From Candidatus Fimadaptatus faecigallinarum (GTDB taxonomy: Bacteria > Bacillota > Clostridia > Christensenellales > Aristaeellaceae), in the NCBI GenBank assembly GCA_018714445.1, contig DVNK01000052.1, positions 1 through 64,000 on the forward strand: DNA of 64,000 bases, given 5' to 3'. This document shows positions 18,368-22,097 of the stretch, piece by piece. Numbering within the stretch: the stretch's first letter is position 1; every line of letters starts with the position of its first letter. Both the position numbers and the translations under genes were made by a program. The notes under the pieces were generated by a model, which worked only from the letters and a program-made list of their open reading frames with translations, did not search any database and was not told the DNA's origin.

Positions 18368-19129
18368 CTAATCACCTCCTGGTAAGTACTCGCCGCCATG
18401 ACGCAGTTTGTCGGCGATGCGCGCGATGAATTCGGCATTGGTGGGTTTGCCGCGATCGCTGTCAATCGTGTTGCCGAATTCGCGCTGCAATACATCCAGT
18501 GCGATGTGCGCCCAGGCGGCCTCTATTGCGTGGCGTATCGAGCGCTCAACGCATCCGGTGGTTGTATTATACCGCCGCGCGACAGCCGGGTAAAGGTATT
18601 TCGAAAAATTGTCCAACAAATACGGCTCAGATAGCGCCATGAGCACGGCCTGAGTTATGTAATTGAACCCATCGAGATGGCGGGGCATGCCCAACTCCAG
18701 CAGCAATTTGTGCAATCGCGCTTCGGCGTCGGGCGGCAGCGGTTGCTGTGCGGTCTGAGCGCGGCGCAATATTGCCGACAGTCGCTCCCGTGTCAGCTCG
18801 CGCTTTTCGACGACCATGCACGCGCCCAGTGTCATCGCCTGACGTGCGGCCGCCTGTTGACCGGGTTCTATCATTATAATAATGCGCGGCATGTGCGGCG
18901 GATGTGTGTCGCTCAGGTAGCGCATGATGCCCAGCGCATCCATGCCGGGCAGCACCAGATCGATAAACGCTATGTCGGGTTGATGGCGGGTGATGGCCAG
19001 TGCGGCGTCTATGCCGTTGGCGGCGGAGTAGACCGTGGCGCCGGTGATAAGGCGCAGGTCATGGCGCAGTTGAGCCAGCTCATGCGCGTCGTCGTCGCAC
19101 AGCAGCAGTGTGAATTGAGGCTTTATCAT
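18368..19129 (-). CDS. spo0A: Sporulation master regulator Spo0A with unusual receiver
   Basis: Response regulator controlling entry into sporulation, 253 residues. The receiver has acidic pocket Asp12-Asp14, phospho-acceptor Asp57 (FIDLVLPGMD) and Lys109. The conserved switch Thr/Ser position is Glu88 (IIIMIEPG where Bacillus has VIMLTAFG), and the Pro after the Lys is Arg. The C-terminal DNA-binding domain is typical: LYPAVARRYNTT, VERSIRHAIEAAW, GKPTNAEFIARIADKLR. The ATG at 19129 follows GGGAGGT. It lies downstream of spoIVB as in other Firmicutes, but 693 bases away across an 88-bp array, and is coupled to deoB. Confidence 0.95.
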   Translation of the reverse strand: MIKPQFTLLLCDDDAHELAQLRHDLRLITGATVYSAANGIDAALAITRHQPDIAFIDLVLPGMDALGIMRYLSDTHPPHMPRIIIMIEPGQQAAARQAMTLGACMVVEKRELTRERLSAILRRAQTAQQPLPPDAEARLHKLLLELGMPRHLDGFNYITQAVLMALSEPYLLDNFSKYLYPAVARRYNTTTGCVERSIRHAIEAAWAHIALDVLQREFGNTIDSDRGKPTNAEFIARIADKLRHGGEYLPGGD

Positions 19130-19282
19130 AGTGTTAGACCTCCCGGTGGTACTGCGCGCGTCCTGCGCTCGGGCGGCGCGGGACGCAGTTGCGTGTGTTA
19201 TGAGCGTTGGGTGCCTGTCAGCCGCGCGGGTCATATTCATGGCAGCCAGGCGTTGTTGGACATTATTGCGCGTGTTGTGATT

Positions 19283-19785
19283 ATGCGAGCCGGCCGCGCC
19301 ATTGCGGCATATGCGCACTGCGCCATGCTAAGCAGCCGTGCCATTGCGGCATAACCGGCGGGGTTTAAGCATGTCCGGCGGCTCAAGCCGTTACGGCATA
19401 TGCGCGCAGTGCCATGCAAAGCAGCCGCGCCGTTGCCGCAAACCGGCGGGGTTTAAGCATGTCCGGCGGCTCAAGCCGTTGCGGCATATGCGCGCAGTGT
19501 CATGCGAAGCAGCCTTGCTATTGTGGCATAACCGGCTGGGTTTAAGCATGTTCGGCGGCTCAAGCCGTTGCGGCATATGAGCGCGATGTCATGCGAAGCA
19601 GCCGCGCCGTTGCCGCAAACCGGCGGGGTTTAAGCATGTTCGGCGGCTCAAGCCATTGCGGCATATGCACGCGATGCCATGCGAAGCAGCCGCGCCGTTG
19701 CCGCAAACCTGCGGGGCTTAAGCATGCCCGGCGGCTCAAGCCGTTGCGGCATATGCGCACAGTGCCATGCGAGCCGGCCGCGCGC
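19283..19785. repeat. 88-bp tandem array between spoIVB and spo0A, about 5.7 copies
   Basis: GGTTTAAGCATG recurs at 19363, 19451, 19540, 19628 and 19716 (last as GCTTAAGC), giving periods of 88, 89, 88 and 88. Units contain CCGGCGGCTCAAGCCGTTGC and GCCATGCGAAGCAGCC. Both ends carry TGCGAGCCGGCCGCGC, so the array may be bounded by one sequence. No start signals support the frames through it. The remainder of the gap (19130-19282) shows nothing recognisable. Confidence 0.92.
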
Positions 19786-21522: not shown

Positions 21523-21807
21523 TTATTGACCTCTGCGCGCCGCGAAGCATTCGCTGCAATAGATGGGACGGTCGTTCTTGGGAATAAAGGGCACGCGCGT
21601 CGGGCGTCCGCACTCAGCGCACACGGTCTCGTACATCTCACGCTGGCCATTGCTGGCGCCACGGCTGGCCTTGCGGGCATCGCGGCATTCCTTGCAGCGA
21701 AGCGGCTCGTTCTGGAAGCCCTTTTCAGCGTAGAACTCCTGTTCGCCGGCAGTGAATATGAACTCCTTGCCGCAGTCCTTGCAAACCAGCGTCTTGTCTT
21801 CGTACAT
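21523..21807 (-). CDS. Zinc-ribbon domain protein (CxxC-x17-CxxC type)
   Basis: 94 residues with four CxxC pairs: CKDC (about 9), CKEC (about 38), CAEC (about 64) and CSEC (about 84). They form two treble-clef or ribbon units, the first with the recurring KFIFTAGEQ(E)FYAEKGF-like motif. Such small proteins are common in Clostridia, of unknown function. They may bind nucleic acid. The ATG at 21807 follows a GGGGGG stretch. It lies directly after the structured RNA, with no terminator between, and ends at a clear terminator, so the RNA is either its 5' leader or is processed from a shared transcript. Confidence 0.88.
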   Translation of the reverse strand: MYEDKTLVCKDCGKEFIFTAGEQEFYAEKGFQNEPLRCKECRDARKASRGASNGQREMYETVCAECGRPTRVPFIPKNDRPIYCSECFAARRGQ

Positions 21808-21830
21808 TGGATTTTTCCCCCCGCTAAACT

Positions 21831-22065
21831 AAATAAATCTTGCTCATGGAAGCGCGGCTGACCTGATCTTTGACCCCACACTCGCCGCCTGAGGCTATCG
21901 CTACCCGGGACCTGCCCTCTCACTACACGCCTTCTCCGGATAGACCGGGGCGGACTTACTTCTAGACCGCACCATGCTCGCCGGGGCTTTGCCCGGGTTA
22001 CGTGGATCGCTTTGCCTGCGGCTGGCATCGACTTTCAATCACAGACCCGTGTCCCACAAGTCCCC
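21831..22065 (-). ncRNA. Structured RNA, probably the raiA motif
   Basis: About 235 bases with its own strong promoter. Transcription would begin at the GGGG at 22065-22062. Conserved-looking unpaired blocks (GGGACACGGGTCTGTG, GATGCCAGCCGCAGGC, GTAAGTCCGCC, GTAGTGAGAGGGCAGG) alternate with hairpins CCGGG-GCTTTG-CCCGG (21981-21996) and CCGG-N5-CCGG (21936-21948). No long frame with a start signal fits it. The block order resembles the raiA motif, a widespread Firmicute/Actinobacteria RNA linked in Clostridium to sporulation and aggregation. The name is from memory. That it is a structured, independently promoted RNA is better supported than the family name. Confidence 0.6.
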
Positions 22066-22068
22066 TAT

Positions 22069-22097
22069 ATTGTAACCCCAATCAACTAAAATAGCAA
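22069..22097 (-). promoter_or_regulatory. Sigma-A promoter of the structured RNA
   Basis: On the minus strand TTGCTA (22097-22092), 17-base spacer, TACAAT (22074-22069), within an AT-rich island. Confidence 0.8.

What the first reader, a model, noticed from the sequence alone, without database searches (positions are those of the whole stretch)
21808..22097. raiA-like structured RNA ahead of a zinc-ribbon gene, close to spo0A/spoIVB
A strong promoter drives about 235 bases of unpaired conserved-looking blocks and hairpins that I match from memory to the raiA motif, whose deletion impairs sporulation and aggregation in Clostridium. Its biochemical role is not settled. Here it lies 0.8 kb upstream of spoIVB on the same strand and leads directly into a four-CxxC protein, a candidate partner.
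Basis: partly seen in the sequence, partly recalled or inferred. Interest (0 to 1): 0.65.

Follow-up and report, generated by a model that had tools for sequence, protein, structure and literature searches.

The report
raiA RNA leading a zinc-finger gene
The window holds a genuine raiA (ModT) RNA, an abundant bacterial RNA of unknown mechanism, and surveys of related genomes show that in many lineages it is the front part of the message for one small zinc-finger protein, a place that a shortened raiA or a tRNA-like RNA occupies in other bacteria, so the protein is a directly testable partner.

Summary
Confirmed: window 21849-22055 (-) is a full-length Rfam raiA RNA (182.8 bits, gathering 101.3, E 1.4e-46). 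It has its own promoter, ends 41 nt before a 94-aa protein with four CxxC pairs (PF13451+PF23477), and a terminator closes this two-part unit before spoIVB.

The pairing recurs. In the class survey this gene directly follows raiA in 21 of 57 raiA genomes (6 families), and in 21 of the 25 that hold both; a clear terminator follows 18 of 36 other raiA RNAs but none of the 21. Of 80 named zf loci, 35 are led by raiA. In the phylum survey 19 of 26 raiA matches are zf-linked, including all 7 below Rfam's cut-off; six of those are a 113-120-nt 'mini-raiA' lacking most of the 3' half, present in 19 of 22 genomes of one order, always 32-41 nt before zf. In other Clostridia the slot holds a tRNA-like element, never found in a raiA-zf leader.

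The spo0A/spoIVB proximity is incidental. Likely mechanism (inferred): leader RNA and zinc-finger protein act as partners, possibly by feedback; processing to a trans-acting RNA is a serious rival. The RNA family is known; mini-raiA and the exchangeable leaders appear new.

The parts
22069..22097 (-). promoter-like pair TTGCTA-17-TACAAT for the raiA-zf unit
   Evidence: consensus scan; a TTG...TA...T pair stands at the same place in all 19 related raiA-zf loci checked
21849..22055 (-). raiA (ModT) RNA, full length
   Evidence: RF03072, 182.8 bits, E 1.4e-46, model 1-209; only copy in the genome
21808..21848 (-). 41-nt spacer between the RNA and the start codon; no terminator
   Evidence: sequence; no hairpin plus T run found
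21816..21822 (-). Shine-Dalgarno-like GGGGGGA
   Evidence: direct reading; relatives have AAGYGAGGGG at the same place
21523..21807 (-). two-domain zinc-finger protein, four CxxC pairs, 94 aa
   Evidence: PF13451 94 bits and PF23477 69.9 bits; TIGR04272 70.3 bits
21463..21488 (-). terminator-like hairpin (11 pairs) closing the raiA-zf unit

Best explanation
It is a bona fide raiA/ModT RNA used as the 5' leader of a two-domain zinc-finger mRNA: promoter - raiA - 41 nt - zf - terminator is one transcription unit. Supported by sequence: the RNA's identity, the close and conserved spacing, the missing terminator between RNA and gene, the recurrence in many families, and the exchange of the leader for a mini-raiA or a tRNA-like element in other lineages. 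Inferred: the zinc-finger protein binds RNA and works with the structured RNA at its own 5' end, either by feedback on its own translation or mRNA stability, or by loading onto the RNA as it is made; the full-length raiA keeps its wider, unknown trans role as well. The P1-P3 core that mini-raiA keeps would be the part that matters for the gene. Separate confidences: identity 0.99; one transcription unit 0.85; functional RNA-protein pairing 0.5; feedback as the specific mechanism 0.3.
For: Identity. Unit. Recurrence: class 21/57, in 21 of the 25 genomes with both genes; named loci 35/80; phylum 19/26, including all 7 matches below Rfam's cut-off; mini-raiA in 19 of 22 genomes of one order, each 32-41 nt before zf. 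The pair persists in several contexts: comFC-raiA-zf-HPF, raiA-zf-(about 0.9 kb)-HPF, comFC-raiA-zf, and the window without comFC or HPF within 1.5 kb. Leader exchange: tRNA-like elements in 45 of 141 non-raiA zf leaders and in none of the raiA-zf leaders; across 291 genomes the 14 best tRNA-like matches all lie directly before zf.
Against: raiA acts in trans in C. difficile and C. acetobutylicum, which speaks against a cis riboswitch there (PMC11706538). 32 of 57 raiA genomes lack the two-domain zf, and zf is about as common without raiA. Four genomes of family f26 have both but apart. No transcript data; no RNA-binding fold recognised for zf; net charge only +2. The linked state is clustered on the RNA tree (6 changes at least, 2 forced), so the independent events are few.
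Confidence: 0.45

Rival explanations
1. Shared-operon view: raiA is cut out of the zf transcript and works in trans exactly as elsewhere; zf merely shares its promoter, as protein genes sometimes share one with tRNAs.
For: The window raiA keeps its whole length; raiA works in trans in two clostridia (PMC11706538); real tRNA-Gly genes lie just upstream of some tRNA-like leaders.
Against: Does not explain why all 19 mini-raiA are attached to zf, why the RNA-to-ATG distance stays 32-41 nt in most lineages, or why unrelated structured RNAs take the same slot.
Confidence: 0.35
2. Ligand-sensing leader: raiA is a riboswitch for zf in these lineages, with the solo trans-acting raiA derived from it.
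For: Cis position with close spacing and no terminator; Lence et al. leave open an ancient riboswitch origin; in family f24 the spacer holds a segment such as ATCCC complementary to the SD GGGAT (by eye).
Against: No conserved expression platform was shown in the short 32-41-nt leaders; trans complementation in other species; no ligand known.
Confidence: 0.12
3. Synteny inertia: zf happened to lie in the ancestral comFC-raiA-HPF neighbourhood and stayed.
For: comFC and/or HPF still flank several raiA-zf loci; linkage clusters on the trees.
Against: The pair stays together where both other neighbours are absent from the flanks (window), and none of the linked RNAs has a clear terminator before zf.
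Confidence: 0.12

Closest known systems
raiA motif / ModT RNA (Rfam RF03072)
   Same: Full-length match over all 209 positions well above the gathering score.
   Different: Reported neighbours are comFC (74%) and the raiA gene (66%) (Soares et al. as cited in PMC11706538); here no terminator follows the RNA and a zinc-finger gene starts 41 nt on; no comFC or HPF within the 1.5-kb flanks searched.
zf_Tbcl / CxxC-x17-CxxC proteins (PF13451, PF23477, TIGR04272)
   Same: Both domains, scores far above the cut-offs.
   Different: No function known to me for the family; it is common without raiA.
tRNA-like structures in mRNAs
   Same: Many non-raiA zf leaders have a D-arm, a T-arm with GGTTCAANTCC and an acceptor stem.
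   Different: Acceptor of about 4 pairs, no CCA, mostly shortened anticodon arm; found here as a relative's leader, not in the window.
Riboswitches (Rfam files raiA as cis-reg; riboswitch)
   Same: Structured RNA directly before a start codon.
   Different: No ligand, no demonstrated expression platform; trans action in other species.

Membership tests
raiA RNA (RF03072) | Score above the curated gathering score | tested here: met
   182.8 against 101.3 bits
raiA RNA (RF03072) | All model positions and helices present | tested here: met
   model 1-209, few non-standard pairs
raiA RNA (RF03072) | Two pseudoknots of the cryo-EM structure | not tested
   not mapped onto the window
raiA RNA (RF03072) | Usual neighbours comFC upstream and raiA (HPF) gene downstream (common, not defining) | tested here: not met
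   absent from the window locus's 1.5-kb flanks
raiA RNA (RF03072) | Very abundant, stable, trans-acting RNA | not testable with these tools
   needs expression data
zf_Tbcl two-domain protein | PF13451 plus PF23477 above cut-off with four CxxC pairs | tested here: met
riboswitch | Structured RNA in the 5' leader of a gene | tested here: met
   41-nt spacing, no terminator between
riboswitch | Conserved expression platform that switches | tested here: inconclusive
   an anti-SD candidate was seen by eye in family f24 only
riboswitch | Specific ligand | not testable with these tools
   needs binding assays

The most novel reading that the evidence does not exclude
The zinc-finger protein is an RNA-binding protein whose mRNA leader is an exchangeable docking RNA: full raiA, a natural minimal raiA of about 115 nt, or a tRNA-like element. 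raiA's long-sought biochemical role would then be, at least in part, that of the RNA half of this ribonucleoprotein, and the P1-P3 core its binding site.
Probability: 0.25. Interest if true: 0.85.

Novelty: new variant of a known kind. Interest (0 to 1): 0.63.

Why it matters
raiA/ModT is among the most conserved and abundant bacterial RNAs without a known mechanism; it affects sporulation, aggregation and c-di-GMP in clostridia (PMC11706538), and gene neighbourhood was judged a poor guide to its function. A recurrent protein neighbour, a natural minimal raiA, and a tRNA-like stand-in at the same place give a concrete candidate partner and a small RNA core to test. The raised tRNA and 5S RNA levels reported for a modT mutant make the tRNA-like stand-in more intriguing.

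Tried and rejected
Folding energy of RNA plus leader against shuffles: uninformative. Structure prediction of zf (pLDDT 85.8, pTM 0.46) and Foldseek against PDB: no match at E <= 0.001; sequence searches of PDB gave only generic zinc fingers. A weak Foldseek match to a Methanosarcina ribosome-bound protein (9znf chain BV, rmsd 20) was not pursued; no paper was found. zf as obligate raiA partner: rejected by co-occurrence. Meaningful spoIVB/spo0A linkage: rejected. Rfam scan of 30 zf loci of raiA-less genomes at a lax threshold found no raiA. The mini-raiA model run on 98 other loci found only the two that hold copies already known from the order where it was defined. Searches for papers linking raiA, or a tRNA-like leader, with a zinc-ribbon gene found none, but Soares et al. 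2024 and Weinberg et al. 2017 are not held, so prior mention in their texts or supplements cannot be excluded.

Full report
What is there. The Rfam raiA model matches 22055-21849 on the minus strand over its whole length at 182.8 bits, E 1.4e-46, against a gathering score of 101.3. It is the only Rfam match in the window and the only raiA copy in the genome. A TTGCTA-17-TACAAT pair lies just upstream (22097-22069), a terminator-like hairpin with 11 pairs lies after the zinc-finger gene (21488-21463), and a further promoter-like site precedes spoIVB (21392-21364). The ORF 21523-21807 starts 41 nt after the RNA; it carries PF13451 (94 bits) and PF23477 (69.9 bits), with four CxxC pairs invariant in 15 aligned sequences. 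So promoter-raiA-zf-terminator is self-contained, and spoIVB lies outside it.

How common the arrangement is. In a survey of 291 genomes of the class, raiA occurs in 57, the PF13451 domain in 163 and the PF23477 domain of the two-domain protein in 117. Twenty-one raiA RNAs, in six families, are followed on the same strand by this zf: 37-41 nt on in families f1, f5, f40, f45 and f53, and 113-120 nt on in f24. Of 25 genomes with both, 21 have them adjacent; the four exceptions are all of family f26. In a simple hairpin-plus-T-run scan, 18 of the 36 solo RNAs have a hairpin of -8 kcal/mol or lower within 140 nt, and none of the 21 linked RNAs has one before zf; the ten non-f24 linked RNAs gave nothing at all, and the f24 spacers gave weak hairpins (down to -7.9). 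Some of the remaining solo RNAs run straight into a T run after P1 (read by eye), so their own P1 may serve as terminator stem.

An independent, named sample: 80 zf loci from species genomes. Thirty-five carry raiA whose matched end lies about 36-50 nt before the zf start, including all of the 28 loci listed first. All 19 of these loci whose upstream DNA was checked have a TTG...TA...T promoter pair before the RNA.

Wider survey. In 249 genomes of the phylum there are 26 raiA matches, 19 above Rfam's cut-off. Comparison with zf positions, together with reading the loci, gives 12 linked above the cut-off (window included) and all 7 below it. Six of the seven are 113-120 nt long: they keep P1, the GGUCUGUGGUUGAAAGUCGA block, the start of P3 and ACCAGGUCAGC, and lack about 80 model positions of the 3' half. 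A model of these (R2) finds 19 of 22 genomes of that order, each copy 32-41 nt before zf. Six of the 19 built the model and match by construction; the other 13 are new. This mini-raiA appears to be a natural minimal form tied to the gene.

What stands in the slot without raiA. In many zf leaders of genomes without raiA, a tRNA-like element of about 60-75 nt sits 25-44 nt before the start codon. It has the D-arm, a T-arm with GGTTCAANTCC, and a 4-pair acceptor whose pairs hold in 29-33 of 33 sequences, with changed pairs in several. On a 21-sequence subset, 172 of 189 acceptor and T-stem cells pair against a shuffle mean of 149.5 and a maximum of 160 in 2000 shuffles; a few T-arms in that script were extracted out of register, which works against the result, and such shuffles do not correct for relatedness. 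Model R1 finds the element in 45 of 141 such leaders at E <= 5e-6, 12 of these not used in the model, and in no raiA-zf leader. Across 291 whole genomes the 14 best matches (49 bits or more) lie directly before zf; lower matches are mostly 70-71 nt long and look like ordinary tRNAs, with a few weaker zf-leader matches (G047, G165, G282, G034 and others) mixed in. One gene family, sigma-factor-like by its C-terminal sequence, lies upstream in 35 of the 45 non-raiA named loci (not checked against Pfam). The remaining leaders are neither type; several look structured but were not resolved.

Context of the pair. raiA-zf occurs within comFC-raiA-zf-HPF (f5), before HPF at about 0.9 kb (f24), after comFC (f45 and 8 named loci), and without either in the window's flanks. 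SpoIVB and Spo0A are not recurrent neighbours; one relative (L176) has the Asp23 gene downstream. On the zf tree the raiA label needs at least 8 changes (3 forced by well-supported branches), on the RNA tree the linked label 6 (2 forced): old and clustered, with poor resolution, so the many loci are not many independent events.

Mechanism. Supported by sequence: one likely transcription unit, conserved spacing, exchangeable structured leaders. The distance of about 25-50 nt leaves room for an initiating ribosome beside an intact RNA (inference from general knowledge). Inferred: zf binds its leader RNA and the two act as partners, perhaps by feedback. Against a pure cis role: raiA complements in trans in C. 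difficile and C. acetobutylicum, and the window RNA is complete. Against an obligate partnership: 32 of 57 raiA genomes have no two-domain zf. The AlphaFold model of zf gave no informative structural relatives, and nothing here shows directly that zf binds RNA.

Relation to the literature. raiA/ModT is known to be abundant and structured, and to affect growth transition and sporulation (PMC11706538; cryo-EM in PMC11751092 and PMC12286853). Reported neighbours are comFC and the raiA gene, and synteny was judged a poor guide. I found no paper naming a zinc-finger neighbour, a mini-raiA or this tRNA-like leader, but two key papers are not held.

Verdict. An ordinary member of a known RNA family in an informative arrangement. 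The window's RNA is a new member; the zf-leader arrangement, the mini-raiA and the exchange with a tRNA-like element are a new variant of a known kind.

Noticed in passing
G000:C35 7804-8073 (L098): The window's genome has a second two-domain zinc-finger gene of another subfamily (RCPACR type) with a long leader that looks structured by eye and is not raiA or tRNA-like.
   Followed up: partly
L104, L108, L109, L113, L121, L129: zf genes of family f26 share a different conserved leader that looks structured by eye (CGGATTATC...GGGCAA before GAGGAGG).
   Followed up: no
L204, L227, L234, L235: Another zf leader type without raiA or tRNA-like match: CAGCGAAAGCTGACGCAAATAT...CAGTCCCAGCA...CTGGGC.
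   Followed up: no
L012-L039 (family f24 leaders): The 113-120-nt spacer between raiA and zf holds an ATCCC-type segment complementary to the Shine-Dalgarno GGGAT, and a GAAC...GTTC stem.
   Followed up: partly
L042, L046-L048, L051, L052: raiA RNAs of family f45 match over 335-348 nt instead of about 207, so they carry an insertion of about 130 nt; its place was not mapped.
   Followed up: no
L066, L076, L083-L085, L087-L089, L091: A real tRNA-Gly(CCC) gene lies just upstream of the tRNA-like or reduced hairpin leader of zf, which suggests a tandem origin.
   Followed up: partly
window 18368-19318 (-): Spo0A-like ORF scores 177.9 bits, below the TIGR02875 cut-off of 200; its start codon is uncertain.
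   Followed up: no
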